Below are positions 37,432 to 53,581 of a stretch of DNA of 64,000 nucleotides, in pieces. The position numbers were made by a program, and so were the translations under genes. Every line of letters begins with the position of its first letter. The first letter of the stretch is position 1. The DNA lies in NCBI GenBank assembly GCA_022763425.1, contig JALEGD010000001.1, forward strand, positions 310,001-374,000, read 5' to 3'. A model generated the notes under the pieces. It was not told where the DNA came from, made no database searches, and saw nothing but the letters and a program-made list of their open reading frames with translations. This DNA is from Pelagibacteraceae bacterium (GTDB lineage: Bacteria > Pseudomonadota > Alphaproteobacteria > Pelagibacterales > Pelagibacteraceae).

Positions 37432-37866
37432 ATGGGGCAAGTCCTTAGAATTAGAGAACCTTTATCTTACAGGTATACTAGCAGAATCAAACGAAAGCAT
37501 GAGACTCTAGAAGCTAAAATTATCATTCGTAGTAGTGATTTTCCTCCAACAGTAAGACTGCCCTTTGAAAAATTAATTGATAAATGGTCAAAAATTTATC
37601 CATATGACAGTTTTTTGAGGTACAGACGGTATCTAAAGCAAATTGAAATACCTTTTATTACCAAATTCCCACTTCTTAATGGCTGGGGCAATATTTATAT
37701 GTTTTCACCTTTTGAGTCTGAAGAAAAAAGCATTTATTATGAAAATCGTCACCGTGTCAGACAAGAGTTTGATGAAGCTATAAAAAGTTTACCAATATTT
37801 GACGGTACTTTTGTAGATAAAAATAAAATCATACCAATTGCTAAACAGTACGAGCTAGATTTTTAA
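37432..37866 (+). CDS. Unknown protein at left edge of defence island
   Basis: 144 residues, not recognised. It is basic and rich in aromatic residues (SYRYTSRIKRKHE, RYRRYLKQIEIPF), with no membrane segment. It lies alone, with about 160 bases of AT-rich sequence before it and 52 after. It could be a nucleic-acid-binding protein on composition, but no domain is visible. It marks the start of the stretch with strongly AT-biased codon use. Confidence 0.6.
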   Translation: MGQVLRIREPLSYRYTSRIKRKHETLEAKIIIRSSDFPPTVRLPFEKLIDKWSKIYPYDSFLRYRRYLKQIEIPFITKFPLLNGWGNIYMFSPFESEEKSIYYENRHRVRQEFDEAIKSLPIFDGTFVDKNKIIPIAKQYELDF

Positions 37867-37918
37867 AAATATATTTTAAAAGTGTTAAATTGTCGTTTAA
37901 TTTTGTTAATGTAATTTA

Positions 37919-38128
37919 ATGAAAAAACTTATTGTAGAATTTGAAAACAGCATATCTTTAAAAGAATTTGATGATAACATTGATCTTCTTGTAGAGACAT
38001 TTCCGAAACAAATGTCTATTGTGATAAAAGTGGAAAATCATAAAGATAAATCCGTAGCAACATTGTGGCCCAATACAGACACCAAGTCTAAAGAAAGAAA
38101 AGTTTGGCAAATACAAGAAGCGCTATGA
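37919..38128 (+). CDS. Small protein coupled to 38125 gene, unknown
   Basis: 69 residues, soluble, not recognised (start MKKLIVEFENSISLKEFDDN, end VWQIQEAL). Its stop overlaps the next ATG by 4 bases (ATGA at 38125-38128), so the two gene products are probably made in fixed proportion, as in a two-subunit or toxin-antitoxin-like pair. No toxin or antitoxin motif is recognised. Confidence 0.55.
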   Translation: MKKLIVEFENSISLKEFDDNIDLLVETFPKQMSIVIKVENHKDKSVATLWPNTDTKSKERKVWQIQEAL

Positions 38129-38535
38129 AGAGCAAAATTATTTCATTTTCAACTTATGCTGATGAATATCTCATTTATGAAAAGAAAACTAAGATAGGTG
38201 ATAAAGAGTATAAAACTATAATTGAAATTAATAAGAAGCTTGTAAGTCCATATAATTTTGCATTAATTTCAAAAAAATTTAATCCACTAGATTTTGATAT
38301 CATTGAACTTGGAGAGTTTTTGTATCAAAATGAGATATCGTTTAAATTGATACTACCTTTAAAAAATACAAAAGGCTTCTATTATAAGTATTTTCCTCAA
38401 AACCAAGGTTACCGAGATCATTATACTATGGATGATAATTTCAGTCTTAGAGAAAAAAGACCGGCAGAACATTTTGAGTATTTAGATATTTTTAATAATC
38501 AGATTAATGGTTTTTTTAAAAATACAAAGCTTTAA
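38125..38535 (+). CDS. Unknown protein, coupled to the 37919 gene
   Basis: 136 residues from the ATG at 38125 (a TTG start 21 bases upstream is less likely because the ATG forms an ATGA overlap). It is an alpha/beta-looking soluble protein (KSKIISFSTYADEYLIYEKK, FKLILPLKNTKGFYYKYFP) with no recognised domain. Small size and position in a defence island make it a candidate accessory or toxin-like protein; that is inference. Confidence 0.55.
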   Translation: MKSKIISFSTYADEYLIYEKKTKIGDKEYKTIIEINKKLVSPYNFALISKKFNPLDFDIIELGEFLYQNEISFKLILPLKNTKGFYYKYFPQNQGYRDHYTMDDNFSLREKRPAEHFEYLDIFNNQINGFFKNTKL

Positions 38536-38628
38536 AAATAATCTTTAATATAGTAATTTTATTTAAGTCCTGATTTAGAAAATAAACTCTACTTGCTGGG
38601 ACTCTAAACACAACGCTAAAGGAGACAT

Positions 38629-38802
38629 ATGAAACAATCTAAAAAATCTGTTCTTCAAAGAATGTATGAAGAAATACAAAGAAATGGCGGTCCTTCTGGT
38701 CCAATATCGCAAGCATTAGTTGATGCTTATGAAGGCAAAGATTATACCAAGCCTTATGAGTTCAAAAGAATTATTCAATTTAAAAAAAGAGGAATATTTT
38801 GA
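38629..38802 (+). CDS. Small basic protein before membrane nuclease, 57 residues
   Basis: Starts MKQSKKSVLQRMYEEIQR, then GGPSGPISQALVDAYEGKDY, and ends with a basic FKRIIQFKKRGIF. An excellent ribosome binding site (AAAGGAG) lies 5-11 bases before the ATG. The stop overlaps the start of the nuclease-like gene by one base (TGATG). The strong ribosome binding site and tight coupling make it a real gene; it may be a regulator or inhibitor of its large partner. Confidence 0.6.
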   Translation: MKQSKKSVLQRMYEEIQRNGGPSGPISQALVDAYEGKDYTKPYEFKRIIQFKKRGIF

Positions 38803-40406
38803 TGAGTCTTTTTAGTGATATCAAATCAAGAATTAATTTAAGAAAAGTTTTAATTCTAAAAGACCAGTGGAAGAAGTATTTTCCTTCAGTTAAAGAATTT
38901 TTATCTGTTGAAAATCTAAGATCAAATATTTTAGATGAATTAGATCCAATTAAGAAAATTGCATTTCCAAAATCAAAAGAGGATGTCTACAGGACGATAA
39001 CACTTGTTGCGATTACCAATGCTATATTAGCAGGACTTCCAGGAAAAATGGGTATTGGAGTTGTAATATCCATAGCTCTTGAAGTTGGAATGGCTGTATC
39101 TATTGCTAATCACTATGGATTTCATGAAGTTAAAAAAGAAAATATCTATAAATATTTAGGTACAGTTACGACTGTAATTTTATCAATTATATTTTTATTT
39201 AAAGAAATTTTGTCTGCTACTTTTTCAGTATTTTCATCATTTACAGGCCCTATAAATCCTTTAATCCCCGCTGAATTGCTAGTGACTAATCTTTTTGGAA
39301 TTATATTTTTAGTTGGATTTAAAGAAATGAAAAGCAAGGGAAGTTTCAATGTTCCAATCTTGACCTTTTATTCTATCGTAAAAGAAACAATTTCTCTCAC
39401 AAATCATCAATATGAATTTGTTAAAAATAAGCCTCCAGAAATATTTAAAAAAGTAAGAAAAAAATTAGTTAGCTTTTTTAAAGGCGAGGTAGATTTAAAA
39501 GATATCTCTAACTCTGAAATCAGAGGGGATGCATTTACTGTGCTGTGTAGTGCACAATTATTAGATAAAAACTATAGCGCTTTAGAAGGTCCACTTGGTC
39601 AAAAATTTATTGAAGCGGTCAGACAATCTTTTCCAACACAAATTAAGCCCGATGCATCTTTAGATGATATTCGAAATCACTTAATGTCATACGACAGCGA
39701 TCAATTACAAAGTTTAATTGATAAAAATATCAAAGGTAAATTGTTTGAAATTTTAGTTAAAACCAGAGAAAATGCTGATGGCAATGAATGGTCAGCCGAG
39801 CAACATCCTGACATAAACCATCCTGGAACCGATCTTGTTTTAACCAATTCAGAGACTGGTGAGCAGATTGAAGTACAGTTAAAATCAACATTTAATAAAT
39901 CTTATGTAGAGACAGAAATGGAAAAAAATCCAGATACTATTTTTATTGTATCTGATGAGGTAGCTGCGAAAATTAACGATCCAAGAGTAATTCCCGCAGG
40001 TTTAACAAATGATGAAGTTAGTAATATCGCGAGGGATAAAGCAAAAAAATTCATAGACGGAAAAATAGATATTGATGACCTTGTTATTAATGTCGGAGGA
40101 ACATCTTTGGCATCAGGTGTTTTTTCAATAGTTCCTTATTTTATTGCTTATAAGAAAAAGAAAATTTCAAATGAGCAATACCAAAAGGTTCTCGAAACTC
40201 TAATTCCAAATTCAACAACCAATTCAATTAATTTAATCTTAAAATATTCTGCTGGAGGAATGTTGTATCTTTGGTGGAGACCAGCACGACTAATTATAGG
40301 TTCTTTATTTGACGATGAGAAACAGGAAGAACCTAAAATTTCACAAACTGAAAAAAAATATTCTAGAAGAGAATTGCTAAAACTCAGTTTTATAAAAATA
40401 ATTTAA
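38802..40406 (+). CDS. Membrane-anchored protein with Mrr-like PD-(D/E)XK nuclease domain
   Basis: 534 residues. Four hydrophobic stretches at about 65-105, 118-146 and 158-174 include a segment resembling DUF697 (LPGKMGIGVVISIALEVGMA). The central domain (about 305-395) has a nuclease-type layout: E316 in KGKLFEIL, D344 in HPGTDLVL and E-V-Q-L-K at 357-361, as in Mrr-like enzymes (D ... QxK). A second hydrophobic pair lies at about 430-510. It could cut incoming DNA at the membrane. The domain assignment is mine from motif spacing; no known full-length family came to mind. Confidence 0.6.
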   Translation: MSLFSDIKSRINLRKVLILKDQWKKYFPSVKEFLSVENLRSNILDELDPIKKIAFPKSKEDVYRTITLVAITNAILAGLPGKMGIGVVISIALEVGMAVSIANHYGFHEVKKENIYKYLGTVTTVILSIIFLFKEILSATFSVFSSFTGPINPLIPAELLVTNLFGIIFLVGFKEMKSKGSFNVPILTFYSIVKETISLTNHQYEFVKNKPPEIFKKVRKKLVSFFKGEVDLKDISNSEIRGDAFTVLCSAQLLDKNYSALEGPLGQKFIEAVRQSFPTQIKPDASLDDIRNHLMSYDSDQLQSLIDKNIKGKLFEILVKTRENADGNEWSAEQHPDINHPGTDLVLTNSETGEQIEVQLKSTFNKSYVETEMEKNPDTIFIVSDEVAAKINDPRVIPAGLTNDEVSNIARDKAKKFIDGKIDIDDLVINVGGTSLASGVFSIVPYFIAYKKKKISNEQYQKVLETLIPNSTTNSINLILKYSAGGMLYLWWRPARLIIGSLFDDEKQEEPKISQTEKKYSRRELLKLSFIKII

Positions 40407-40416
40407 TATTTTTACT

Positions 40417-40430
40417 TTGATCTAAATCAC
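40417..40430 (+). promoter_or_regulatory. CRP/FNR-like dyad upstream of methyltransferase
   Basis: TTGATCTAAATCAC matches the FNR consensus (TTGAT, four bases, ATCAA) at 9 of 10 defined positions. In its wider context (TTTGATCTAAATCACAAA) it is also close to the CRP consensus. It lies 21 bases before the GTG start of the methyltransferase and 10 after the previous stop, the right place for a repressor or activator site. The binding protein is unknown. Confidence 0.5.
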
Positions 40431-40451
40431 AAATAACTTTATCAATAATTT

Positions 40452-41465
40452 GTGAAAACAATTAAGTTTATTGATTTATTTGCTGGCGTAGGGGGAATGA
40501 GGATAGCACTTGAACGTTCTGCTTTTAAAAATAATATTTCGCAAAAATGTGTTTTATCTTGCGAAATTGATAAACGGTGTAGAGAAGTTTATCAAAATAA
40601 CTTCTTAGATAATGATTTTGTAGAAGACATAAAATCTATAAATAAAAAAAATATTCACAAAATAGTTCCAGATCATGATGTTTTATTGGCCGGTTTTCCT
40701 TGCCAACCATTTTCAAATGCAGGAGTTGTGCAAAGAAGGTACTTAAATAGGCCACATGGTTTTAGTGATAAAAAACAAGGCAATTTAATTTTTAACGTTA
40801 TAGATATTTTAAGACATAAAAAACCTAGTGCTTTTATTTTAGAAAATGTGAAAAATTTAGGTTCTCATAACAAAGGACGAACACTCCAAGTTATTTTAAA
40901 AGAATTAAGAAAAGATTTTTATGTTCCAGATCCAAAAATATTAAATGCAAAAGATTTTGGATTACCTCAAAAACGAGAGCGGATTTATATAATTGGTTTT
41001 AAAAAAAAGAAATCAACAGAATTTAATTATCCAACACCAACGTCGCAAAGGACATCTGTTGGAAAGATTTTAGAGAAAAAAGTTAGCAAAGAATATACAA
41101 TCTCTGATCGTTTATGGACTGGTCATAAAAATAGAAAAATAAGAAATTTAAAAAGAGGAGCGGGATTTGGATATAGGTTGTCAAAATCAAATGAACCTTT
41201 TACTAGAACAATTACTTCTAGATACGCTAAAGATGGAAGTGAATGTTTAATTTATCAGGGCAAGAATAAAAACCCAAGATTTCTCACTCCCAGAGAGTGT
41301 TTCAGATTGCAAGGATTTCCAGAGAGTTTTAAAATATCAAAATACAAGACACATGCTTACCAACAAGCGGGGAATGCAGTACCTGTAAATGTTGTAACCA
41401 AAATTTGTGATAATATTTTTAATTATATTTTTACAACTTCAAAAAACTTAAAAAAAACAGCTTAA
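40452..41465 (+). CDS. drmMII: DNA cytosine-5 methyltransferase (DISARM DrmMII-like)
   Basis: 337 residues with the full set of C5-methyltransferase motifs: I (DLFAGVGGMR, residues 8-17), IV (GFPCQPFSNAG, catalytic Cys84), VI (ILENVKNLG, Glu131), VIII (PQKRERIYI), IX/X (TPRECFRLQGFPESF, YQQAGNAVPV). The target-recognition region between VIII and IX is short. It methylates cytosine to protect host DNA; the target sequence cannot be predicted. Class 2 DISARM uses such a methylase. The start is GTG, preceded by a CRP/FNR-like dyad. Confidence 0.9.
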   Translation: MKTIKFIDLFAGVGGMRIALERSAFKNNISQKCVLSCEIDKRCREVYQNNFLDNDFVEDIKSINKKNIHKIVPDHDVLLAGFPCQPFSNAGVVQRRYLNRPHGFSDKKQGNLIFNVIDILRHKKPSAFILENVKNLGSHNKGRTLQVILKELRKDFYVPDPKILNAKDFGLPQKRERIYIIGFKKKKSTEFNYPTPTSQRTSVGKILEKKVSKEYTISDRLWTGHKNRKIRNLKRGAGFGYRLSKSNEPFTRTITSRYAKDGSECLIYQGKNKNPRFLTPRECFRLQGFPESFKISKYKTHAYQQAGNAVPVNVVTKICDNIFNYIFTTSKNLKKTA

Positions 41466-41471
41466 TTTTTT

Positions 41472-41500
41472 TTTACATCAAAGTTTGTCAATGTTAAACT
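41472..41500 (+). promoter_or_regulatory. Sigma-70-like promoter of the restriction genes, likely leaderless
   Basis: -35 TTTACA (41472-41477), 17-base spacer, -10 TAAACT (41495-41500). Transcription would start at about 41507-41508, on or next to the ATG at 41508. No ribosome binding site precedes this ATG, so the drmE-like transcript is probably leaderless. The promoter lies right after the methyltransferase stop, which separates expression of the modification gene from that of the other genes. Confidence 0.5.
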
Positions 41501-41507
41501 AGATGTT

Positions 41508-44228
41508 ATGGGGAATGCTAATAAAGATATTATAAGCGCATTACCAAAAGACTACGATTGGATCGATAGTATTAATTTTGAGACATTTGCAAGCAAAGAG
41601 CATTATTCATCTCCGCCAAAAATATTAAAATTTCTTTTAAATATTATAGACCATTTTGAGGACCAGCATTTGAGTTTTGTACTACCTGCTAAAAAAAATA
41701 TTTCTTATATTTTGTCGATTTTATTTGCTTTAGAAAAAATCAGAAAAAATCAAAAAAACTTTATTGATGATTTTGAAAACTTTTTGAAACCTGGAACTAA
41801 TGTAATTTATAATTTAGAAAATTCAGAAAAAGGGAAGGTTTATAAATACCTTGGAAAAAAGGAGGGTGAAGAAGAAATTACAGTTATTGAAACATTGCCA
41901 TCTAGAGGTTTAGATCCATGCAGAATAGAGAGAAAAATAACAAATCTTTTACAATTTTATCCAACGACAAAAAATAAACCAGTAGGAAGGAGACCTCCAA
42001 AAGATTATCTACCAGAGCGTAATCATTTAGATAAATTGTTAAATATTGATACTTTTAATAACCCATTCTTATTAAGAAATTCAATAATAGTTCTCACAGA
42101 AAAAAAGAGCATTAACACTTTTTTCGATAATCAAAAAATTAACGGCAGTTTACTCAAAGATTTTATTTCAATCGCTCAAATCAATGAGGAAGGTGATTTA
42201 GAAAAGTTTAAAAAATTTGACTCGATCTCAAATGATGAAAAAAAAGAAAGTATAAAAATTGAACCATTAATTATTTATTGTCACAACATCTATTCATTAT
42301 ATGAATATTTAAAAAAACACAAAGATACTAAAGTTATTTTAACCGATACAGTTTCTAAGTTAAATAATGTTTCTATTTTAAAACAAATACAAGAAATTAA
42401 TTCTAACCACAAATTTATTACTTTAAATGACTATGATGACTTTGAAAATTTAGAGGATTTTAAATTAAAAATTGATCACCCGATTTGGAAATTTGAAAAA
42501 TCTGAATTAGATGATTGGATAGAATTAGATGAAAATACTATACAAAATAATAGAAATTATAATTCTTTTGACAGTAACTCAAAAATAAAAAAATATTTTG
42601 TAAATTATATAAATAAAAAAAAAACAATTTTAGACATTCCTGAAAATATTTTTGATAAAATTAATAGAAAATTAAAAATTTTGGATGAATTAGTTAAAAA
42701 ATCAGAAGAAAACTCCGATGAATTAATTGATATAAATTACAAGTTCAGAAAACTAAAAGGTAGAGTCCAAGATTACATTTTTGGCTTTAATGATGAATTA
42801 AAAAATATTTTTGAAGAAAGTTTAAAAGAAATAGCAAGTTTTAGAAAAGATAGACAAAATCTATTTTCAGACCAGACTTATGACACAATAGTAAATATTG
42901 AAAATTATTTTAAAGAAATAGATTTAACAAATAATAATTTTTTTAAAAATCGTCTTAAATTATTAAAAAATATTTTAGAAGATTCTCAAAACCAATTTAA
43001 TAAATCAACCACAACTTTTATCGTTGATAATCCTAAAGTAAAAAAACATTATGAAGAAAACATAAGAGAAAAATTTAATTTAGATTTTGAAATTAATTCA
43101 TCCTTTAGACCAAGGCGAAATTTTAAATTTGCTTTAATTTTATCCGAGTTATCTGAAAGAAGAATAAGTAAAATTTTAAATAAAAATTACTATAAAGAAT
43201 TAATATTTATTGCAACACCAACAATGAAAGAAAATATAAATAAAATTATTGATTATGATAATTTCAAATGGAAAAAATTTTTACTAGATAACGGTATTAA
43301 ACACAAATTATCCAAGCTAAATAATATTACAGATAATCATTTTAATTATAAAGAACACCATCAATATCAAAATTCAAAAGAAGATTTGACTAATAATGTT
43401 TTTATTCAATTAGATAATCCGCTTTTAAAAGAATTGAAAAATGTAGAAAAATCAGAGGATAAACTAGAAACAAATTATGTAGAATTCTATGGTGATTGTT
43501 ATTCATTATTCTCTCAAAATACACAGATCAAAGTTTTAAATAATATTTTTTTTAATTCTAAGTCTCGAGAAACCAAGTCAGTTAAAGAGTTGGTACCCGA
43601 GGATTATGTATTATTGAGAGACTCATCTGATCGAGATGTAGTAGAAAGTGAAGCGAGAATATTAGCAGTTGAAAATAATATTAATTATGAAGATTTAAAG
43701 AAATATTCTTCATTATGGTTAGAATTAATTTGGGAGCATTTAAAAATAGCCGAAAATACTGCGGCATCTCACAGTAATAAATCTAAGTATAAAAAAATAT
43801 TAAGAAAAAATGGTTATAAAAAAAGTGATGGCACCATTAGAAATCTTATAAACAACTTAATTATTTGTCCTGATGATGAGATAGATTTAAAGATTCTTAT
43901 GTCATCTTTGAATGAGTTTGTTGGGAGGGAGGTCATTACAAAAGAAGAGGTAAAAAAAATCTATATTTCAGCCTACAATCAAAAAAATATTCACAGACAA
44001 GCAGGAAGAAATATTTCTTTAAAAATTTCACAATCTTTAAGTAATGAAGAGGTAATTATTGATAGAGAGCCAGTTAGAGTCGATTACAATAGAGATGGCT
44101 CAATTTCATTAAATTCTAATGAAAGTAATAACCCAGAAGCTTGGATTGTGCAGGTAAAAAAAGTTGATGATGATGTAATTTACACATCAAAAATTGACTC
44201 CAATAGACTAAAATGGATTGATACATGA
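41508..44228 (+). CDS. drmE: DrmE-like protein of class 2 DISARM
   Basis: 906 residues, with no well-known domain. Position between the methyltransferase and the DrmA/DrmB genes, length and the C-terminal region (YKKILRKNGYKKSDGTIRNL, ending with a small beta domain) fit DrmE of class 2 DISARM. The N-terminal part (LSFVLPAKKNISYILSILFALEKIRK) looks like a degenerate helicase- or ATPase-like first domain without a Walker A motif, and coiled coil-rich helices fill the middle (about 370-520). The role is unknown in the family. It overlaps the next gene by 4 bases. Codon use is strongly A/T-biased. Confidence 0.6.
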   Translation: MGNANKDIISALPKDYDWIDSINFETFASKEHYSSPPKILKFLLNIIDHFEDQHLSFVLPAKKNISYILSILFALEKIRKNQKNFIDDFENFLKPGTNVIYNLENSEKGKVYKYLGKKEGEEEITVIETLPSRGLDPCRIERKITNLLQFYPTTKNKPVGRRPPKDYLPERNHLDKLLNIDTFNNPFLLRNSIIVLTEKKSINTFFDNQKINGSLLKDFISIAQINEEGDLEKFKKFDSISNDEKKESIKIEPLIIYCHNIYSLYEYLKKHKDTKVILTDTVSKLNNVSILKQIQEINSNHKFITLNDYDDFENLEDFKLKIDHPIWKFEKSELDDWIELDENTIQNNRNYNSFDSNSKIKKYFVNYINKKKTILDIPENIFDKINRKLKILDELVKKSEENSDELIDINYKFRKLKGRVQDYIFGFNDELKNIFEESLKEIASFRKDRQNLFSDQTYDTIVNIENYFKEIDLTNNNFFKNRLKLLKNILEDSQNQFNKSTTTFIVDNPKVKKHYEENIREKFNLDFEINSSFRPRRNFKFALILSELSERRISKILNKNYYKELIFIATPTMKENINKIIDYDNFKWKKFLLDNGIKHKLSKLNNITDNHFNYKEHHQYQNSKEDLTNNVFIQLDNPLLKELKNVEKSEDKLETNYVEFYGDCYSLFSQNTQIKVLNNIFFNSKSRETKSVKELVPEDYVLLRDSSDRDVVESEARILAVENNINYEDLKKYSSLWLELIWEHLKIAENTAASHSNKSKYKKILRKNGYKKSDGTIRNLINNLIICPDDEIDLKILMSSLNEFVGREVITKEEVKKIYISAYNQKNIHRQAGRNISLKISQSLSNEEVIIDREPVRVDYNRDGSISLNSNESNNPEAWIVQVKKVDDDVIYTSKIDSNRLKWIDT

Positions 44229-46093
44229 GATTAGTACCAAACTATATTTCAGAAGGTGCCCCCACAGGAGAAAAAAGGGTTTTTAATATTTTAAAATCAT
44301 TAAATGATAAAAAATATGAAAAATGGGTTGTTTACCATTCACTAAATTATCCTGTTCATGTTCAAAAAAAAGATAAAACAAGTTTTCAATATTTTGGAGA
44401 AACAGATTTTTTAATTTTTAATCCCGATAAAGGTTTGATTAATATTGAAATAAAAGGTGGCAGAATATCAGTAGAAGATGGCACTTGGTATACAGAGAAT
44501 CGTTCTGGAAAAAGTAAACTAAAGAAAAGTCCATTTGTACAAGCAACAGACTCAATGAAAAATATTGAAAGATATCTTAATAAACAATTTTTAAAAATTT
44601 CTCAAGATTTTTTAGTTATTTTTCCAGATTGTGATTTTGATCAGGATTCAATTGAATGGTCAAAGGATAGTTTTTGCAGCGGTCAAGTAGACCAACTTCT
44701 AGAAAAAAAAATTCTAACTTTAGAAAAAAAACTAACCGAAACCGGTGGGCGATTTTATCCAAGCTTAGAAGATCAAAAAAAATTAAAAAATATTTTTAGA
44801 TCAAATTTTGAAAGTTTTCAATCTTACCATACACTATTAAAACAGAGTTTATTTGAGATAAACAAATTTACTGATGAGCAGATAAATATTTTAGATCAAT
44901 TTGAAACTAACAGAATGTTGATTGAGGGCAGTCAAGGAACAGGCAAAACTGTACTTGCAATTGAAATAGCAAAAAAAAAAATATTTGAAGGAAAAAAAGT
45001 TTTATTTCTAAATTCAAATAGATTAGCTAGTGAAAATATTATAAATAAATTTAAAGATTTTAATCAATCAAATTTAAATCAAATAACAATAAATACTTTT
45101 AGTAGTTTTATTTTTAAAAGAGCACACAACTATTTTTCTAAATCATCACATAAAGATGAAAAATATATAATCGCAGACCAAGGAGATTTTCATTATAAAC
45201 ACAACATTTTAACAGGATATGTTGTAGACAAGTCAATAGAGGATGTATCGCTTCTTCAATACGACTGTATAATATTAGATGAAATTCAGAATTATTATTT
45301 TTACGAAAATTTTTACGATCTTTTAGACTGCCTCTTGAAAGATGGTTTGAGCAAAGGATCTTGGTATTTCTTTGGTGATTTTGATTTTCAGAAACTTTTT
45401 ACGATCAATGAAAATTTAAGCGAAGAATTTTTAGAACAGAAACATCCCAAAAATAATTTAAAAGATTATGGGTATTATAATCAAAGATTAACCCATAACG
45501 TTAGGAATGCCTATGAAATTTGTATTCAATCTCCAATAATTTCAAATGTAACTGATAAACATCCATCAATTTATAGAAATACAACAGGAGAGGTACATCA
45601 TCATTTTGCGGAAAAAAAAGAAAATGAAATACAAATTTTAAAAGATTTAATAGAAAAGCTTTATAAAAATGGGATAGATGGAAATGATATTACAGTTCTC
45701 TCTCCATTTAGACTTGAAAACGATAAAAACCTGTTAAAACATTGTGATATATCAAAATTTTACAGTGTGCTTAATTTAAATAAAGTAAATAATTTTGGTG
45801 AAGAAATTGTTAGCGAAAATAAAAATTCTATTTATTTTTCTACTATTCAATATTTTCAAGGTATGGAAAATAAAATTATAATTTTAACAGACCCAATGCT
45901 AACTTCTTTTGGTACATCAGAAACTATAGAAAAAATTAAAAATAAAGAACCACTCGATCAAAGATATCCTGAAAACTTTTTAACTTTTAATGCCATGGGA
46001 AGGGCTAATTCGATATTATATGTTATTTGGAATAAAATATTTGAAAAATATGTTTCACAAAAAATAGCAAAATCAATTTCTTTAATAAAATGA
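44225..46093 (+). CDS. NERD nuclease - superfamily 1 helicase fusion in DISARM-like operon
   Basis: 622 residues. A NERD (nuclease-related) domain occupies about 10-130, with E16, D61 and E75-x-K77 as the likely nuclease residues (GETDFLIFN ... NIEIKGG). A P-loop helicase domain follows: Walker A GSQGTGKT (235-242), Walker B ILDEIQ (D352, E353), late motifs YFQGMENKIIILTD and GRANSILYVI. It resembles UvrD/DUF2075-type helicases. It sits between drmE and drmA with 4-base overlaps on both sides and so is part of the system. Known DISARM loci as I recall them carry a phospholipase D gene (drmC) instead; this nuclease may replace it. Confidence 0.85.
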   Translation: MRLVPNYISEGAPTGEKRVFNILKSLNDKKYEKWVVYHSLNYPVHVQKKDKTSFQYFGETDFLIFNPDKGLINIEIKGGRISVEDGTWYTENRSGKSKLKKSPFVQATDSMKNIERYLNKQFLKISQDFLVIFPDCDFDQDSIEWSKDSFCSGQVDQLLEKKILTLEKKLTETGGRFYPSLEDQKKLKNIFRSNFESFQSYHTLLKQSLFEINKFTDEQINILDQFETNRMLIEGSQGTGKTVLAIEIAKKKIFEGKKVLFLNSNRLASENIINKFKDFNQSNLNQITINTFSSFIFKRAHNYFSKSSHKDEKYIIADQGDFHYKHNILTGYVVDKSIEDVSLLQYDCIILDEIQNYYFYENFYDLLDCLLKDGLSKGSWYFFGDFDFQKLFTINENLSEEFLEQKHPKNNLKDYGYYNQRLTHNVRNAYEICIQSPIISNVTDKHPSIYRNTTGEVHHHFAEKKENEIQILKDLIEKLYKNGIDGNDITVLSPFRLENDKNLLKHCDISKFYSVLNLNKVNNFGEEIVSENKNSIYFSTIQYFQGMENKIIILTDPMLTSFGTSETIEKIKNKEPLDQRYPENFLTFNAMGRANSILYVIWNKIFEKYVSQKIAKSISLIK

Positions 46094-49000
46094 TAGATAA
46101 AAAATTTAATAATCAGAAAGAGTGTAGAGATTTTATATTTGAAGAACTTAAAAGGGAATTGATTGGTCCTTATGGAAATATTTTCCATCCTAGTGGAAAA
46201 GACTGGAATAATTTAACTCCTTCAACAAGTATAGATTTTCAAGATACGTCTAAACATCAGCAAGAAGTTTTATCACAATCACCAAAATTTAATTATATTG
46301 CCGGTGTTTTATATCCAAAAAAGTCATCTAAGGATGAATTAGTTGATGAAGATAGTTCTAATGAAGATGAAAGTGAATCAAATAACGAGTTAGATAATTT
46401 TGATAGTAAAGATGCAGATAGTTCAAATATTGAAAATGATAATGTAGAAGATCATTCTTCAGATAATGAAAATATTATTGACTTAACAAACGAAATGCAG
46501 CCCTCGGCGATGGGTCTGACATTTTGTGTAAAAGATATTTTTGATCTTAATGTTGAAGTTAAGGATATAGGTCAGTATTATAAAATAGGTACCAAAGAGC
46601 TAGTTCCTGAGGAAGCTAGAATTGTAGCGTTTTATATATCTTTTTTTGCTGGTGATAAATCATCGTATAAGTTTATTTCAAATCATTTCAAATTAGCAAA
46701 CTCACAAAGAAATACATGTGAAAATTATTTGGCTGATATTTTTAAAGTTAAACAAAATACTTTCAAAAATTTAGTAGATTATTTTGATAAATTTAGCGAA
46801 CATAGAGAAGGGTGGAAGAATTCAACTGTTAAAATAAATGAAGATATTTATAAAAAATTAAAAGATTTAGACCAATCAACATTTGAACAAAGAATTATTG
46901 AAATTATTAATAATGAAACTACTAATGAAAAAAATTTAATTGAATATGATGGTTACTTTAGACGATCAATAAATTCAAAAATACTATTTACAAAAGAAGA
47001 ATTAGAAACAAATTTATCAAAATCACTCACCAAACAATTTGTTGCTAATGATAACGATGAACTAGGATTATCTTGCTCTGTAAAAGTACGGAAAAATAAT
47101 AATGACCAGCTATATTATATTACATGCTCAATTATTAATACTAGCGATGATAGTGATGGTTCCTCGCCAATAGATAATTATTTTTTTCAATGTAATTTTT
47201 CTGTTTTTTCATCTGATAAAAAAAATACTTTTTACGAATATCAAGAAAAGAAATTAGATTTTTTAGATGAAGAAGAAAAATCTATAAATTTACTACATCA
47301 TAATAAAAAATCATTTGCCATAGGTCATGGATGTTCATCGAATTGGATATTAGATAACGATGGAAGTTGTACAAGAGTATTTTCAGAAATTTTTCCTTCA
47401 TATGAAATAAAACCAATAGTTCCCCAACAATTTGATGATGTAGATTTAGATATGGTTACATTTTCTGAGGATATTAACTTCGCTGTTTCACAATTAAAAA
47501 ACTTGTTACAAAAATATGGAGATTGGCTAAATCATGAAAAAGAAAATACCTTAAAACTAAATCCTATTTTACAACAAACATCTAAAGCAAATATCAAAAA
47601 AGCAGAAACTTCATTAATGAGAATGAATGAAGGTTTAGAAATATTGAAAAAAGATAAAAAGGTTCAAAATGCATTTAAATTTATGAACAAAGCTATTGCG
47701 CAACAACAATGGCATTATGAATTTTCAACTAAAAGAAAAAGTAAAGAAAATATAGATTTTAAGAATCTAAATTATCAAGAGGAATTATTAAAAAATAAGA
47801 AGGGTAAGTGGTATCCATTTCAAATTGCTTTTATCATATTGAACATAAAAAGTTTTCAAGATCCACACTCTGATGAGAGAGATATAGTTGATTTAATATG
47901 GTTTCCTACAGGAGGTGGTAAAACAGAAGCTTATCTTGGTCTATCGGCTTTTGTAATTTTTTTCAGAAAATTAATGAATAAAGATAGTTCAGGTACAGCA
48001 GTTGTAATGCGATATACTCTAAGATTATTAACCACTCAGCAGTTTCAAAGAGCTTCAGCCTTAATATGTGCATGTGAAAAAATAAGAAAAGAGAATGAGG
48101 ATTTACTTGGTGTAAAAAAAATCACAATTGGATTATGGATTGGAGGAGAAACTACTCCGAACAAAGAGGATTCAGCAAAGAAAAAATTGGAAGCAATGCA
48201 TAAGAGTAAATATGCCCAAAATGATTTCTTATTACTGAACTGTCCATGGTGTGGTGAAGAGATGGGTGGAGAGGAAGTTAAAGGTTATAGAATAGAAAAT
48301 CGAAGATTTACATTTGCCTGTCCAGATAATAATTGTCATTTTTGTGAAAATCATCTTCCAATATATTTAATTGACGAAAGCATTTATAAAATTTCTCCAG
48401 ATTTACTAATAGGTACAGTAGATAAGTTTGCTAGCTTACCGTGGAAGCAAGAAGCCATCGGATGTTTTGAAAATAACGATAATAATTTAAGTCCTGATTT
48501 AATTGTTCAAGATGAACTTCATTTAATTTCGGGACCGCTAGGTTCAGTGTCTGGAATGTACGAAATATTAATAGACTCTGTTTTTGAGAAAAAAATTAAC
48601 AATAAAAATGTTAGAAGCAAAATAGTAGCTTCTACGGCAACTATTAGTAGGTCTGAAGACCAAATCAAATCATTGTATGCAAGAGATAGTGCTTTATTTC
48701 CACCTCAAACTAATCAGATCGAAGATAATTTTTTTGCTATAGAAGATAAGGAAGCTGATGGAAGAAAATACGTTGGTTTATTTTGTTCTTCAGCTACTTC
48801 ACCCCAGATTACTACTTCAAAAATAGTATCTTCTATTTTAATTAGCGGTAAGATATTAGAAAAAAACTCAATAAAATCAGAGATTTTTGACCCTTATTGG
48901 ACACAATTAATTTATTTCAACAGTATTAGAGAACTCATGGCTGGAGCCACTTTAATTAATGATGATGTTAAAGATTATATACAAGGAATTTATTCTAAAA

Positions 49001-49815
49001 AAGGTTTTCAACTATTTGATAAGTCTTATTATAGAAATACAAGCTTTGATGAATTAACTTCAAGGGTACAAAGCAGTGATATTCCAAAAATCTTATCAAA
49101 ACTTTTTGTAGAAAAAGAGGATAATAAAAAAACCTATCCCCTAGATATTTGTTTGGCAACAAATATGATCCAAGTAGGTATAGATATTCCTCGATTGAGT
49201 CTTATGGTTATTAATGGTCAGCCTAAAACTACCTCAGAATATATTCAAGCCTCAAGTCGAGTTGGACGTAAAGGCGGAAATCCAGGTATTGTATTTACAG
49301 TTTTGTCACCTTTCAGAGCAAGAGATAGATCTCATTATGAGCATTTTAAAAATTATCATCAATCAATTTATAATTTTGTAGAACCAACAAGTGTTACTGC
49401 TCATTCAGACGCTGTAAGAAAACGCGCTTTACATGCGGTAGTTATTGGCCTTTGTAGGCTTTGGGGAGATGACTCCTTGAGAAAAAAACCAAACCCATTA
49501 CCAAGTCAAGAACTAAAAAAAAGAATAGAAGATAAAATAATTAATTATGCAAGAATAGCAGACCCAATTCATTTTGATGAAATTGAAAAAACAAAAAAAG
49601 ATATCAAAAATATCTTTGATAAATGGGAAAGAATTAGTCCAAATAATTATGGTTCAATGGACTCAAATCAAAAATCAAAAGATATTTTAATGCATCCTTC
49701 TGGAAATGAAAAAATAGTAGATGTACAGCCATTTGAAACTTTAACGTCAATGAGAAATGTAGATCAAGAATGTAATGCTAATATTATAGCAGATTTTAGA
49801 GGTAATAGAGAATGA
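46090..49815 (+). CDS. drmA: DISARM helicase DrmA
   Basis: 1241 residues. Superfamily 2 helicase motifs: Walker A FPTGGGKTEA (605-614, K611), RYTLRLLTTQQFQRA with WIGGETTP following (both DrmA hallmarks), DELH (808-811), and motif VI QASSRVGRKGG (R1057, R1060). A zinc-binding insert uses C718, C721, C744, C749 and C752 (CPWC, CPDNNCHFC). The N-terminal 500 residues are acidic and poorly conserved, with a Asp/Glu/Ser-rich stretch at about 75-145. DrmA is the translocase of DISARM and works with DrmB. It overlaps both neighbours by 4 bases. Confidence 0.9.
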   Translation: MIDKKFNNQKECRDFIFEELKRELIGPYGNIFHPSGKDWNNLTPSTSIDFQDTSKHQQEVLSQSPKFNYIAGVLYPKKSSKDELVDEDSSNEDESESNNELDNFDSKDADSSNIENDNVEDHSSDNENIIDLTNEMQPSAMGLTFCVKDIFDLNVEVKDIGQYYKIGTKELVPEEARIVAFYISFFAGDKSSYKFISNHFKLANSQRNTCENYLADIFKVKQNTFKNLVDYFDKFSEHREGWKNSTVKINEDIYKKLKDLDQSTFEQRIIEIINNETTNEKNLIEYDGYFRRSINSKILFTKEELETNLSKSLTKQFVANDNDELGLSCSVKVRKNNNDQLYYITCSIINTSDDSDGSSPIDNYFFQCNFSVFSSDKKNTFYEYQEKKLDFLDEEEKSINLLHHNKKSFAIGHGCSSNWILDNDGSCTRVFSEIFPSYEIKPIVPQQFDDVDLDMVTFSEDINFAVSQLKNLLQKYGDWLNHEKENTLKLNPILQQTSKANIKKAETSLMRMNEGLEILKKDKKVQNAFKFMNKAIAQQQWHYEFSTKRKSKENIDFKNLNYQEELLKNKKGKWYPFQIAFIILNIKSFQDPHSDERDIVDLIWFPTGGGKTEAYLGLSAFVIFFRKLMNKDSSGTAVVMRYTLRLLTTQQFQRASALICACEKIRKENEDLLGVKKITIGLWIGGETTPNKEDSAKKKLEAMHKSKYAQNDFLLLNCPWCGEEMGGEEVKGYRIENRRFTFACPDNNCHFCENHLPIYLIDESIYKISPDLLIGTVDKFASLPWKQEAIGCFENNDNNLSPDLIVQDELHLISGPLGSVSGMYEILIDSVFEKKINNKNVRSKIVASTATISRSEDQIKSLYARDSALFPPQTNQIEDNFFAIEDKEADGRKYVGLFCSSATSPQITTSKIVSSILISGKILEKNSIKSEIFDPYWTQLIYFNSIRELMAGATLINDDVKDYIQGIYSKKGFQLFDKSYYRNTSFDELTSRVQSSDIPKILSKLFVEKEDNKKTYPLDICLATNMIQVGIDIPRLSLMVINGQPKTTSEYIQASSRVGRKGGNPGIVFTVLSPFRARDRSHYEHFKNYHQSIYNFVEPTSVTAHSDAVRKRALHAVVIGLCRLWGDDSLRKKPNPLPSQELKKRIEDKIINYARIADPIHFDEIEKTKKDIKNIFDKWERISPNNYGSMDSNQKSKDILMHPSGNEKIVDVQPFETLTSMRNVDQECNANIIADFRGNRE

Positions 49816-51749
49816 GTAAGTTTAAAGAAAAAAAAAATGCTAAAAGAACAATAAGAAGATCACACATTATTTCTACATATGGAGTAGGTTCAATTTATCA
49901 ATTTAAAAATAGATATAGTATTCAGGGAGAATCCGATTCTCTTATGTTAGCAGGATTAGATGAATGGTTTGATAATGAAAATTTAATACCTGAAGAATGG
50001 ACAATTCATGAGCCAAGATTAGAAACTTTATTATCTAAAAAATTTTTTGTTAGCCCCCCTGATTATAGAACAAGATCTGAAGATAGTAGACTTAATTTTA
50101 AAAAATTACCTTATCTAAGATTTCCTAATTGGCATAGATGCTTTTCTTGTGGTTGGATGAAAAAAGTTTCTCCACATCAAATAAATCCTATCTGTACCTC
50201 TAGCGATGATACCAACAAGCACAAAGCATTTAAAAACTGCTCGAATAACAAAGTTCCAAAAAGCTTAATACCCGTTAGATTTATTGTTGCATGTAAAAAA
50301 GGTCATATTGATGATTTTCCATTTTTAGATTGGGTTCATCAAGGCAAAAAAGCAGAAAGTGATTGTAAAAATTTTTTAAAAATTTTTGGAGGTAAACAAG
50401 GAAATTCCTCACTTGCTGGTTTGACAATAAAATGTGTAAAATGTGATACAAAACCAATTAGTCTAGCGGCATTTTTTGGTGGAAGAACTAAGGAAAATGA
50501 AAACCCTGATAATAGTCCGTTTTCTAAAATTAAATATACATGTACTGGCCGTACGCCATGGACAAATAGTAATGAAAAATGCGATGAAAAGGTGCCAAAA
50601 GTAATTTTAAGAGGAGCTTCAAACGCTTACTATCCTGTTGTTAAAAGCTCAATTTACATACCTCTTCTTACAGATAATTTTGATCAATCAATAATAGAAA
50701 TTATTGATAATCCTATTAAATGGAAAACTATTTCTGAAGAGGCTGCAAAATCTAAAGAAGATGAACAGAGCTTTAAAGATTTTTTAACAAACCTTGCTAA
50801 ATTCTCAAATGTTGATCCTCAGCAGTTTACTCTAGCGGTTAATAAGAAACTTGGAAATTTAAATGATCAAGTAGAAGAGATATCAAAAGATAATAGTGAA
50901 GAGAATTATCGTTTTCAAGAATATAATTTTATTATTAACAAAGAGACAGGAGAAGATACTCAAATGTTAAAAAAGCAAATGAGTATGAATGACTATAGTC
51001 CAATATCAGATTATTTTAATAATATTTTTTTAATACCAAGATTGATTGAAACGAGAGTTCAAATGGGTTTCACAAGATTACTCCCTTATGATGAAGGTAT
51101 GAAAGCTGAAAATATTCAAAAGTTATCTAAGGGTAAGCAACAATGGCTTCCCGGTATGGTTGTGAAAGGCGAAGGTATATTTTTAGAATTTAATAAAGAA
51201 AAAATTGATCATTGGGTTAAAAAATTTAACTCTCAATCAATTGAATCGATTAAAAAAAATTATAATCAATCGAGGAAAGATAGGGGCTTGTCGTCTAGAG
51301 AAATTGATGCAAAATTTATATTAATTCATACTTTTTCACATCTTCTGATTAATCAGTTAAGTTATAGTTGTGGCTATGCCAGTGCTTCATTGAGAGAAAG
51401 AATATATTGTAATTTATCTAATAAAGACAAAAGTATGCAGGGCATACTTATTTATACATCATCAGGTGACTCAGAAGGAACTCTTGGTGGTCTTGTGAGA
51501 GAAGGGGAGCCCCAAAATTTACCGAGAATTATTTCAGAAGCATTAAAGAAAGCACTTAATTGCTCATATGATCCTGTGTGTCTAGAGACTACATCCCAAG
51601 GACTAGGTGGGACAAACGCCTCATCATGTCATGCCTGCACTTTTTTAGCTGAAACGTCTTGTGAAGAGGGAAATCAATTATTAGATAGAACGACCGTTAT
51701 TGGAAGCAATGATGATCTTAAAGGTTTTTTTCAAGACATTATTGATTAA
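49812..51749 (+). CDS. drmB: DISARM protein DrmB (DUF1998)
   Basis: 645 residues. The N-terminal part contains Cys pairs (CFSCGWMKK and others) and the ACKKGHIDDFPFLDWVHQG segment common to DrmB. The C-terminal DUF1998 domain starts near H506 (HTFSHLLINQLSYSCGYASA) and ends with a Cys cluster C606, C609, C617 (SCHACTFLAETSC). DrmB forms a complex with DrmA that loads on foreign DNA. It follows drmA with a 4-base overlap and precedes the zinc-ribbon gene by 2 bases. Confidence 0.9.
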   Translation: MSKFKEKKNAKRTIRRSHIISTYGVGSIYQFKNRYSIQGESDSLMLAGLDEWFDNENLIPEEWTIHEPRLETLLSKKFFVSPPDYRTRSEDSRLNFKKLPYLRFPNWHRCFSCGWMKKVSPHQINPICTSSDDTNKHKAFKNCSNNKVPKSLIPVRFIVACKKGHIDDFPFLDWVHQGKKAESDCKNFLKIFGGKQGNSSLAGLTIKCVKCDTKPISLAAFFGGRTKENENPDNSPFSKIKYTCTGRTPWTNSNEKCDEKVPKVILRGASNAYYPVVKSSIYIPLLTDNFDQSIIEIIDNPIKWKTISEEAAKSKEDEQSFKDFLTNLAKFSNVDPQQFTLAVNKKLGNLNDQVEEISKDNSEENYRFQEYNFIINKETGEDTQMLKKQMSMNDYSPISDYFNNIFLIPRLIETRVQMGFTRLLPYDEGMKAENIQKLSKGKQQWLPGMVVKGEGIFLEFNKEKIDHWVKKFNSQSIESIKKNYNQSRKDRGLSSREIDAKFILIHTFSHLLINQLSYSCGYASASLRERIYCNLSNKDKSMQGILIYTSSGDSEGTLGGLVREGEPQNLPRIISEALKKALNCSYDPVCLETTSQGLGGTNASSCHACTFLAETSCEEGNQLLDRTTVIGSNDDLKGFFQDIID

Positions 51750-51751
51750 TA

Positions 51752-51997
51752 ATGAACCAATTTTTGTGCCCTGAATGTGGATCCAAAGATGGAGGTTTGG
51801 AAACTCTGTTAAATAAGGAGATGAATGAGGAATCTAAAGATCCTTGGGATTCTGTTCTTGAGCAAATTGAATGTTCAGTCTGTGGATCTGTAATTCCAGC
51901 TCATTTAGCAGAACGTTGGGATAATCTTTCTATTGAGGATGCTAAAAAAGAATGGAAAGAAAAATATAAAAAAAATAATCAAAAACAAAAATTTTAA
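51752..51997 (+). CDS. Small zinc-ribbon protein ending the DISARM-like operon
   Basis: 81 residues with two CxxC knuckles (LCPECGSKDG at the start, ECSVCGSVIP in the middle), expected to bind one zinc ion, and a very basic Lys-rich tail. It begins 2 bases after the drmB stop and has its ATG in the TAATAATGA context, so it is part of the operon. It is not a known core DISARM component as I recall them. It could aid DNA binding. Confidence 0.7.
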   Translation: MNQFLCPECGSKDGGLETLLNKEMNEESKDPWDSVLEQIECSVCGSVIPAHLAERWDNLSIEDAKKEWKEKYKKNNQKQKF

Positions 51998-52187
51998 GGT
52001 AAGTTTGGCTAAGTCGAATTCACCGTAATAAAACGTAAGTTATTTTTTTTATTTTTTTTTGTTTTAACTCTTGATCCCAGAATCATTTTTGTGTTAAGGA
52101 GTTTTTATAAGTACATAATTCTTTCTAATTATGCGCCCTTAAATATTCCTTAATGGAGGGCCCTTACACCATAAACATAAATCTTAC

Positions 52188-52209
52188 CGAGCAGAACTGT
52201 GTCTGCACG
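52188..52209 (+). promoter_or_regulatory. Hairpin in 5' leader of the 52240-53581 cluster
   Basis: A stem CGaGCAGA (52188-52195) / TCTGCaCG (52202-52209) with one A-A mismatch and a 6-base loop. An earlier possible stem GCCCT (52136-52140) / AGGGC (52157-52161) lies upstream, and GGGCCC is a short palindrome. No T-run follows, so these are not terminators. A strong AGAAGGAG ribosome binding site follows at 52226-52233. The leader is 200 bases long and GC-richer than its surroundings; a regulatory RNA or attenuator is possible. No known class was recognised. Confidence 0.4.
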
Positions 52210-52239
52210 TTTGGGATTTAAAATTAGAAGGAGAAACTT

Positions 52240-52521
52240 ATGTTTTTCAATTTTAATAAAGGCCAATCTAAAGGGTCTTTAATGGATAAAAGTCTTAATC
52301 AAAATGGATTAAGCGCTGCATTTACCAAACAGCTAAGTGCGGTTTCAAATACAAGATATAAATTTCAAGATGGTGGATCAGTAGATCCAATTGATGAAGA
52401 GATCCTCCAGCTGGAGAGATTCGTTGGCTTGAGACCTACAAATGCCATGGAGGCATTTTGGGTGGAGCAAATGAAAGACCGTTTGTCTTATCTTTATGAA
52501 GTTAAAAAAGGGAAACAGTAG
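52240..52521 (+). CDS. Small unknown protein, first gene of three-gene cluster
   Basis: 93 residues with a good ribosome binding site (AGAAGGAG). It starts MFFNFNKGQSKGSLMDKSLN, has a Gly/Ser-rich middle and a helical C-terminus (AFWVEQMKDRLSYLYEVKKG). No signal peptide or membrane span. It lies 10 bases before the next gene. Function unknown. Confidence 0.6.
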   Translation: MFFNFNKGQSKGSLMDKSLNQNGLSAAFTKQLSAVSNTRYKFQDGGSVDPIDEEILQLERFVGLRPTNAMEAFWVEQMKDRLSYLYEVKKGKQ

Positions 52522-52530
52522 GAGGTTTGT

Positions 52531-53076
52531 ATGACGACGATGAAAAAGATTATTGCAAACCGTGCTAATGGAAAAAAAAGCAAAGGACCTGTAACCTTTA
52601 ATGGCAAGCGTTGGTCTTCTAAAAATGCTATAAAACACGGGTTAAACGCTACCCAAAGTACTTTAACTATTGGAGAAAATACCAAAGAACACAGTGAGTT
52701 TGTTAAGCAATTAACACTTCATTATCGTCCTTTTGATTACTACTCTCAAATTTTAGTTGATCGTATCGTTGATATTCATTGGAAATTAAAAAGAATTTCT
52801 AAAATTGAAAGTGGCATCTATGCTTTTGAAATCCAGGCACATGAAGCTGATCAGTATAAAACACCTGTCAAAGATGAAGTAAATCATGAGGACTTTGCTT
52901 GTGATGATAAAAAAAGAGTGAGTTATCAAAATCTTTTATACGGTATTGCTTATTTAAAAGATTCTAATAGCGGAAATGCTTTTATCAAACTTAGCTCTCA
53001 TGAAAGTAAGTTAATTAACAAGTTAACTCAGCTTGAAAAAATCTATCAGCAACACAAGGAGAAGCATAATGGATAA
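52531..53076 (+). CDS. Protein with KHGLNA motif, unknown family
   Basis: 181 residues. The N-terminus (IIANRANGKKSKGP ... SSKNAIKHGLNA) is a well-recurring motif (ANRANAxKSTGPxTxxGKxxSSxNAxKHGL) seen, as I recall, in many unrelated bacterial genomes, often in many copies and without known function. The helical remainder (about 50-181) contains YYSQILVDRIVDIHWKLKRI. The ribosome binding site GGAGG lies 7 bases before the ATG. The next gene starts within its last codons. Confidence 0.7.
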   Translation: MTTMKKIIANRANGKKSKGPVTFNGKRWSSKNAIKHGLNATQSTLTIGENTKEHSEFVKQLTLHYRPFDYYSQILVDRIVDIHWKLKRISKIESGIYAFEIQAHEADQYKTPVKDEVNHEDFACDDKKRVSYQNLLYGIAYLKDSNSGNAFIKLSSHESKLINKLTQLEKIYQQHKEKHNG

Positions 53077-53581
53077 AGAAAAAACTAGTCATATCAATAA
53101 AAGCAAAAAGCTTTGGATAAAGGGTAGAAAATCTTTAATTAACAAAACGAACCCAAATAATCGTTATTTTATGCGACTGATTAAAAAAGCAACTGAAGAT
53201 TTTCTGTCTGTTCATGGAGAACAGATTAAAAAAGATCAGCCTAAAGTTTATTATTCCATGATTAACAGGCCTCTTCCTAAAAAGTATCAAAAGGAAGAAG
53301 TGGTTAAACCAGTTGAAGTTAAACCAAGTGTTCCTGATCCTGTTCGAGAAAATGAACTTGTTTTGTTTCAAAAAAAACGTGAGCTTGAAAGAAAAGCTGA
53401 GGTTGAAAAGATTAGGAATGAACAAAAAGAAAGTATGAAACTTTCTTTTAGCGTGGATAGAAAAGATCCTAATTGTGGCATGAGATTTGTGAGTGCTTAT
53501 AGTCCTGTGAATACTAATAGGTTTGGTCACTCACAATCGTGGAAATATAAGGAGGAGAAAAAAAGATCTTACTACTGGTAA
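53069..53581 (+). CDS. Basic protein, third gene of cluster, unknown
   Basis: 170 residues from the ATG at 53069, chosen because AAGGAG lies 8 bases before it; the longer upstream frame would overlap the preceding gene by 44 bases. It is very basic (many Lys and Arg), with a Pro/Val-rich middle (VVKPVEVKPSVPDPV) and a C-terminal AGFSFVDRKDP-like segment that ends in RSYYW. Nucleic-acid binding is plausible from charge. No family was recognised. Confidence 0.6.
   Translation: MDKEKTSHINKSKKLWIKGRKSLINKTNPNNRYFMRLIKKATEDFLSVHGEQIKKDQPKVYYSMINRPLPKKYQKEEVVKPVEVKPSVPDPVRENELVLFQKKRELERKAEVEKIRNEQKESMKLSFSVDRKDPNCGMRFVSAYSPVNTNRFGHSQSWKYKEEKKRSYYW

What the first reader, a model, noticed from the sequence alone, without database searches (positions are those of the whole stretch)
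40452..51997. Class 2 DISARM-like system with no drmC and two extra genes
Methyltransferase, DrmE-like, DrmA and DrmB are in the class 2 DISARM order. A phospholipase D gene (drmC) is not present. A NERD-helicase sits inside the operon and a zinc-ribbon protein ends it. All of drmE to drmB overlap by 4 bases, so the extra genes are integral. This may be a distinct DISARM subtype in AT-rich marine bacteria. DISARM components are known from published family definitions; the subtype claim is inference.
Basis: partly seen in the sequence, partly recalled or inferred. Interest (0 to 1): 0.85.

Follow-up and report, generated by a model that had tools for sequence, protein, structure and literature searches.

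The report
DISARM-like defence with NERD nuclease-helicase
This is a virus-defence operon related to the known DISARM system, in which the usual cutting enzyme (DrmC) is missing and a fused nuclease-helicase sits inside the operon instead; the same arrangement recurs in at least ten bacterial phyla, so it looks like an undescribed branch of DISARM rather than a local oddity.

Summary
In detail: an intact operon with a DrmMII-type methyltransferase, a DrmE-family protein, a NERD-nuclease/SF1-helicase, DrmA, DrmB and a small Cys4 protein. drmE to drmB overlap by exactly 4 bp each, and there is no drmC. drmE-NERD/helicase-drmA-drmB is recurrent: 30 of 95 surveyed DrmA loci, in at least ten phyla, usually tightly overlapping. 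The drmC-type PLD nuclease is absent from all 46 drmE loci of that survey. NERD catalytic residues and helicase motifs are conserved in 51 homologues. Over the 30 loci the NERD-helicase tree tracks DrmA (r=0.92) almost as well as DrmB does (0.95), while the methyltransferase does not (0.28). DrmA falls in a clade apart from canonical class 2 and PLD-bearing systems. The host genome has no PLD-family protein at all, so the published idea of a borrowed PLD nuclease cannot apply here. The published class 2 definition requires DrmC, so this is class-2-like, not a member. Best reading: a DISARM-related variant whose nuclease is a NERD-helicase. No function was tested.

The parts
40452..41465 (+). 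DNA (cytosine-5) methyltransferase, DrmMII-type (337 aa)
   Evidence: PADLOC DrmMII 358 bits, Pfam DNA_methylase 288 bits, TIGR00675 290 bits. Its tree correlates poorly with DrmA (r=0.28): exchangeable part.
41508..44228 (+). DrmE-family protein (906 aa); predicted degenerate SF2-helicase-like fold plus beta/HTH-like C-terminal part
   Evidence: NF038316 117 bits over cut-off 80, no match to DISARM_DrmE NF038323; AF2 model pLDDT 70.5, pTM 0.54; best PDB folds are SF2 helicases, E 6e-5, TM about 0.2; no P-loop.
44225..46093 (+). NERD nuclease fused to SF1 helicase (622 aa): the proposed nuclease of the system
   Evidence: Pfam NERD aa 15-133; D61, E75, K77 and helicase motifs conserved in 51 homologues; model pLDDT 80, best folds SLFN11, UvrD, Dna2.
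44267..44623 (+). NERD nuclease domain
   Evidence: PF08378 aa 15-133; catalytic D61/E75/K77 98/100/100% conserved
44879..46024 (+). SF1 helicase domain (Walker A GSQGTGKT aa 235-242; DEIQ aa 352-355)
46090..49815 (+). DrmA helicase (1241 aa)
   Evidence: PADLOC DrmA E=1e-220; NF038325 919 bits (cut-off 950); PDB DrmA 7s9v E=2e-133
46318..46500 (+). Acidic 61-aa low-complexity segment of DrmA (aa 77-137, 36% D/E) at the position of the DrmA trigger loop
   Evidence: weak alignment with Serratia DrmA 166-263 around the published trigger loop 176-232; similar acidic segments in relatives
49812..51749 (+). DrmB, DUF1998/MZB zinc-binding partner of DrmA (645 aa)
   Evidence: NF038324 462 bits (cut-off 240), PF09369 39 bits
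51752..51997 (+). Small Cys4 protein (81 aa, two CxxC); accessory, not conserved
   Evidence: 2 bp after drmB; nothing similar downstream of drmB in the other loci
37344..53545 (.). Approximate extent of the genomic island carrying the operon
   Evidence: Congeners carry 180 bp (G398) or 927 bp (G403) at the same place between homologous flanks

Best explanation
The operon is an anti-phage defence system of the DISARM family. DrmA (SF2 helicase) and DrmB form the DNA-sensing motor, held off by an acidic trigger loop in DrmA until single-stranded or 5'-overhang phage DNA displaces it. DrmE is a large, probably catalytically dead helicase-like scaffold or DNA-binding subunit. The NERD-helicase replaces DrmC as the system's own nuclease: its SF1 motor moves on the DNA opened by DrmAB and its PD-(D/E)xK-type NERD domain cuts it. 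The DrmMII methyltransferase marks host DNA and is an exchangeable accessory. Shown: gene content, intactness, overlaps, recurrence, catalytic-residue conservation, co-inheritance, separate DrmA branch, no PLD protein in the host. Inferred: defence function, the trigger-loop role here, DrmE's role, and that the NERD domain is the effector that cuts phage DNA.
For: Family assignments. Contiguous drmE-NERDhel-drmA-drmB in 30 of 95 loci, at least ten phyla, mostly overlapping by 4 bp or a few bases. PLD gene in 0 of 46 drmE loci. Less biased samples: in 398 Pseudomonadota both DrmE_fam-positive genomes, and in 398 Bacillota 4 of 5 over cut-off, have the NERD-helicase directly after drmE; none has PLD. 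NERD D/E/K and helicase motifs conserved in 51 proteins. Tree correlation with DrmA: NERDhel 0.917, DrmE 0.937, DrmB 0.949, MTase 0.282. Separate DrmA branch (SH-aLRT 99). No PLD protein in the host. Acidic segment at the trigger-loop position. Island absent from congeners.
Against: No experiment. 13 of 46 drmE loci have neither NERD-helicase nor PLD nearby, one of them with only a 68-aa NERDhel stub (L025), so the NERD-helicase may be dispensable or replaceable. Canonical DISARM works without DrmC in published assays, so an in-operon nuclease may not be the main effector at all (PMC9142583). The DrmE model is of moderate confidence and its helicase resemblance rests on low TM-scores. The survey started from the window's own DrmA, so it is biased towards relatives.
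Confidence: 0.62

Rival explanations
1. The operon is an ordinary class 2 DISARM that lost drmC; the NERD-helicase is an accessory repair or second-line gene that travels with it and is not the effector. DrmAB blocks phage DNA by itself.
For: DrmC is reported dispensable and often missing from DISARM operons (PMC9142583). 13 drmE loci lack both nucleases, one with a NERDhel remnant.
Against: DrmA lies outside the canonical and PLD-bearing branch. The NERD-helicase is embedded between drmE and drmA in 30 loci and co-inherited with DrmA nearly as well as DrmB. PLD is absent from the whole branch, not lost once.
Confidence: 0.22
2. The NERD-helicase is a self-targeting (abortive) effector or a separate defence module merged into the operon, as proposed in the literature for the NERD domain of PglW in type 2 BREX.
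For: NERD-REases are proposed backup, suicidal effectors in BREX (PMC12839542). The nearest PADLOC label is the NERD-helicase of reverse-transcriptase (DRT) systems (95 bits).
Against: It is interleaved by overlapping reading frames with drmE and drmA, and two placements (before drmA, after drmB) both stay with drmAB. The fusion to a processive-type helicase suggests DNA processing.
Confidence: 0.1
3. The operon is mainly a modification-dependent DNA repair or uptake system, not phage defence.
For: YprA-family helicases and UvrD-like helicases also serve repair (established knowledge of these families); no defence assay exists for this branch.
Against: Sporadic distribution (no close homologue of the NERD-helicase in 60 relatives), an island missing in congeners, the methyltransferase, and homology of four components to DISARM proteins.
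Confidence: 0.06

Closest known systems
DISARM class 2 (type II; DrmE, DrmMII, DrmA, DrmB, DrmC)
   Same: DrmA, DrmB, DrmMII and a DrmE homologue; drmE before drmA-drmB; helicase and DUF1998 module in separate genes.
   Different: Canonical loci L109/L110 read drmE-drmA-drmB-drmC-MTase with a PLD DrmC and no NERD-helicase. Here drmC is absent, the NERD-helicase is inserted, the methyltransferase comes first, DrmE matches only the broad family and DrmA lies on another branch.
DISARM class 1 (DrmD, DrmMI, DrmA, DrmB, DrmC)
   Same: DrmA/DrmB core; DrmA of the solved Serratia complex aligns over the helicase core, with an acidic segment at the trigger-loop position.
   Different: No SNF2 helicase DrmD, no adenine methylase DrmMI, no DrmC.
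TALON (Bell et al. 2025, PMC12458937)
   Same: YprA-family helicase operon with a NERD nuclease.
   Different: TALON has an ARMADA-like YprA homologue with TPR-CSD and TBP genes, largely in Chloroflexota. Here the helicase is split as DrmA/DrmB and NERD is fused to an SF1 helicase.
NERD-helicases of DRT (RTasNERD-Hel) and C3a187 (NERD+UvrD) in PADLOC
   Same: NERD plus SF1 helicase fusion (95 and 32 bits).
   Different: Those belong to other systems; none is labelled a Drm component.

Membership tests
DISARM (any class) | DrmA-type SF2 helicase | tested here: met
   PADLOC DrmA 732 bits; NF038325 919 bits, just under its cut-off of 950; PDB DrmA 7s9v E=2e-133
DISARM (any class) | DrmB with DUF1998/MZB encoded as a separate gene next to DrmA | tested here: met
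   NF038324 462 bits over 240; PF09369 over its cut-off
DISARM class 2 | DrmE (DISARM DrmE equivalog NF038323) | tested here: not met
   Only the broad NF038316 DrmE_fam is matched, 117 bits over 80; NF038323 and all PADLOC DrmE models give nothing
DISARM class 2 | DrmMII cytosine methyltransferase | tested here: met
   PADLOC DrmMII 358 bits, its best match; target sequence unknown
DISARM class 2 | DrmC, PLD nuclease (required by PADLOC's published type II definition) | tested here: not met
   No PLD in the operon or genome; definition from PMC9252829
DISARM class 2 | DrmA groups with canonical class 2 DrmA | tested here: not met
   Window in the drmE+NERDhel branch (99), canonical L109/L110 in the PLD-bearing branch
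DISARM (any class) | Protection against phages | not testable with these tools
   needs an experiment
TALON | ARMADA-like YprA with TPR-CSD and TBP genes | tested here: not met
   Operon gene content against the description in PMC12458937

The most novel reading that the evidence does not exclude
A third major class of DISARM, spread over at least ten phyla and largely unrecognised by current models, in which a co-evolving NERD nuclease-helicase is the obligate effector and the methyltransferase is an exchangeable add-on. It would supply the missing nuclease step in the DISARM mechanism.
Probability: 0.45. Interest if true: 0.75.

Novelty: new variant of a known kind. Interest (0 to 1): 0.62.

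Why it matters
How DISARM destroys phage DNA is open: DrmC is dispensable and often absent, and the structural study proposed that a host PLD nuclease is borrowed (PMC9142583). This branch carries its own conserved nuclease-helicase in the operon, in a host with no PLD protein at all, so the nuclease step becomes directly testable with one point mutant. It also shows that definitions requiring DrmC miss a widespread branch: PADLOC's DrmE models give nothing for the window and next to nothing for its relatives, and split-DrmE members are missed or score under the cut-off of the NCBIfam DrmE model.

Tried and rejected
A viral-contig scan with the single DrmA protein found nothing, because patterns from one sequence were not conservation-guided. 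A tblastn of window DrmE against plasmids gave no match: DrmE is too divergent (13-18% identity in alignment A3). Considered and rejected: the zinc ribbon as a subtype marker (only in the window); restriction to AT-rich marine hosts; a borrowed host PLD nuclease; one-off insertion of the NERD-helicase; DrmE as an active helicase (no P-loop in the window protein or nearly all homologues). The sequence profile of DrmE finds no solved structure.

Full report
OBSERVATION. The six ORFs are intact and located as stated. drmE (ends 44228) / NERD-helicase (starts 44225), NERD-helicase (46093) / drmA (46090) and drmA (49815) / drmB (49812) each overlap by 4 bp; the small Cys4 ORF starts 2 bp after drmB. 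Profiles: MTase = DrmMII, 358 bits; DrmE_fam NF038316, 117 bits (cut-off 80); NERD PF08378, 41 bits (cut-off 22); DrmA, PADLOC 732 bits and NF038325 919 (cut-off 950); DrmB_fam, 462 (cut-off 240). No PADLOC DrmE model and no NF038323 (the DISARM DrmE equivalog) match was reported for the window DrmE.

HOST AND ISLAND. No PLD-domain protein (PF13091, PF00614) exists anywhere in it, although 12 and 11 of 14 control genomes have one. The operon sits on an island of about 16 kb (roughly 37344-53545). Congeners G398 and G403 have 180 bp and 927 bp there between homologous flanks; the left flank keeps only the last ~60 bp of a 592-aa ABC-transporter gene intact in those relatives. The drmE-drmA stretch is poorer in G+C (0.23-0.26) than the rest of the window (0.29-0.38). 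No close homologue of the NERD-helicase occurs in 60 relatives (the best is 28% identical).

RECURRENCE. A DrmA alignment was used to scan 84,980 species genomes: 570 relatives, the best 80 kept. With 14 plasmid loci and the window this gave 95 DrmA loci, annotated with profiles built here. drmE is present in 46. The NERD-helicase lies between drmE and drmA in 30, and after drmB in 3 more. 13 drmE loci have no NERD-helicase; one of these, L025, retains a 68-aa C-terminal stub. PLD genes: 0 of 46 drmE loci, 3 of 95 overall. The 33 drmE+NERD-helicase loci cover ten named phyla: Pseudomonadota, Actinomycetota, Bacillota, Acidobacteriota, Myxococcota, Verrucomicrobiota, Nitrospirota, Thermodesulfobacteriota, Dormiibacterota, Bacteroidota. 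Gene junctions are mostly 1-4 bp overlaps or a few bases.

LESS BIASED SAMPLES. Of 398 Pseudomonadota drawn evenly, two carry DrmE_fam: the window's genome and G289. G289 reads drmE(1792 aa)-NERDhel-drmA-drmB. Of 398 Bacillota, five exceed the cut-off: three read drmE-NERDhel-drmA, one has drmE-NERDhel at a contig end, one reads drmE-drmA-drmB-MTase; none has PLD (L137 is probably the same genome as L027). Canonical class 2, found with the DISARM_DrmE equivalog in 2 of 397 Bacillales, reads drmE-drmA-drmB-drmC-MTase with no NERD-helicase.

THE NERD-HELICASE. In 51 homologues the NERD residues D61, E75 and K77 are 98, 100 and 100% conserved, as are E16 (96%) and Q106 (100%). The helicase motifs GxxGxGK and DExQ, and R427 and R593, are invariant. 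The AlphaFold2 model (pLDDT 80) matches UvrD/Rep, Schlafen-11, UPF1 and Dna2; sequence profiles match HelD, PcrA, UvrD and GajB. It is therefore very likely an active nuclease-helicase.

DRME. The protein is split into ~330-aa and ~510-aa genes in 24 loci. Homology of the C-terminal half to long DrmE is supported by NF038316 on L042 (E=4e-21) and by hhalign (97.6% probability). The window model is of moderate confidence (pLDDT 70.5, pTM 0.54). Its best folds are SF2 helicases (RIG-I, SNF2, XPB; E 6e-5 and up, TM about 0.2), and no P-loop is present. A dead helicase-like scaffold is a reasonable inference, not a demonstration.

EVOLUTION. In DrmA trees (FastTree, 97 rows; IQ-TREE quick, 39 rows) the window and the drmE+NERDhel loci form one branch (99), with canonical class 2 and PLD-bearing DISARM in the other. 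Not every drmE locus is in it: the clostridial L044/L053/L065 group falls outside, and the position of L037 differs between the trees. The sister of the window is L028, a marine alphaproteobacterial single-cell genome. Distance correlations over the 30 loci: DrmA-DrmB 0.949, DrmA-DrmE 0.937, DrmA-NERDhel 0.917 (0 of 2000 permutations as high), DrmA-MTase 0.282. The NERD-helicase is inherited like a core subunit; the methyltransferase is swapped. The MTase value uses the best match anywhere in the locus, so some unlinked enzymes may be included.

MECHANISM. The solved DrmAB complex is autoinhibited by a loop (residues 176-232) displaced by 5'-overhang DNA (PMC9142583). Window DrmA has a 61-aa segment with 36% D/E between the motifs GVLYP and PSAMG, which flank that loop in the solved protein (aligned only weakly, 2.7 bits). 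Where both motifs could be recognised, relatives have a similar acidic segment, about 65 aa long in the drmE groups. The same sensor logic is therefore plausible. The published gap is the nuclease: DrmC is dispensable and often missing, and a borrowed host PLD was proposed. Here no such protein exists in the host and a conserved nuclease-helicase is in the operon, so I infer it does the cutting. This is untested.

LITERATURE. No paper held describes a NERD-helicase in DISARM. Bell et al. 2025 mention many uncharacterised DISARM-like classes without describing this one, and assign a NERD nuclease to TALON, which is different. Ofir et al. 2018 is not held, so accessory genes listed there cannot be excluded.

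VERDICT. Observation confirmed; subtype idea largely right; zinc ribbon and ecological restriction wrong. New variant of a known kind.

Noticed in passing
L063, L075, L078, L081, L083-L085, L087, L090, L091, L093, L094, L097-L099: Further DrmAB loci, mostly actinobacterial, with a 1550-1830 aa protein upstream and usually a UvrD-like helicase next to drmA, without drmE or PLD (L094 and L098 carry a NERD-type helicase before drmA, L084 one after drmB): probably another undescribed DISARM-like class.
   Followed up: partly
L009 16606-17061, L021 5602-6054, L037 3130-3567, L042 15444-15857, L044 4743-5156, L053 6910-7350, L056 664-1122: Vsr-type (very short patch repair) endonuclease genes near the drmE/drmAB operons or their cytosine methyltransferase; two are annotated so, the others are recognised only by a similar N-terminal sequence. 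The window has none.
   Followed up: no
L025 9795-10001: NERD-helicase reduced to a 68-aa C-terminal stub between drmE and drmA in a Latescibacterota genome: an apparent loss in progress.
   Followed up: no
window 38799-40406: 535-aa protein directly upstream of the methyltransferase: hydrophobic N-terminal half and a C-terminal part matching PADLOC candidate PDC-M72B (61 bits); no homologue in the surveyed loci.
   Followed up: partly
L044, L051, L065: Clostridial loci with the NERD-helicase after drmB instead of before drmA, on a separate DrmA branch.
   Followed up: partly
L029 2552-7729; L124 6613-11991: DrmE fused behind an N-terminal P-loop domain (about 1725-1792 aa), next to a NERD-helicase.
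   Followed up: no
window 37284-37343: Last ~60 bp of an ABC-transporter gene that is complete in relatives; the rest is gone at the island's left edge, so the place is a variable site in this genus.
   Followed up: partly
window 21937-31185: A single 3082-aa ORF, not examined.
   Followed up: no
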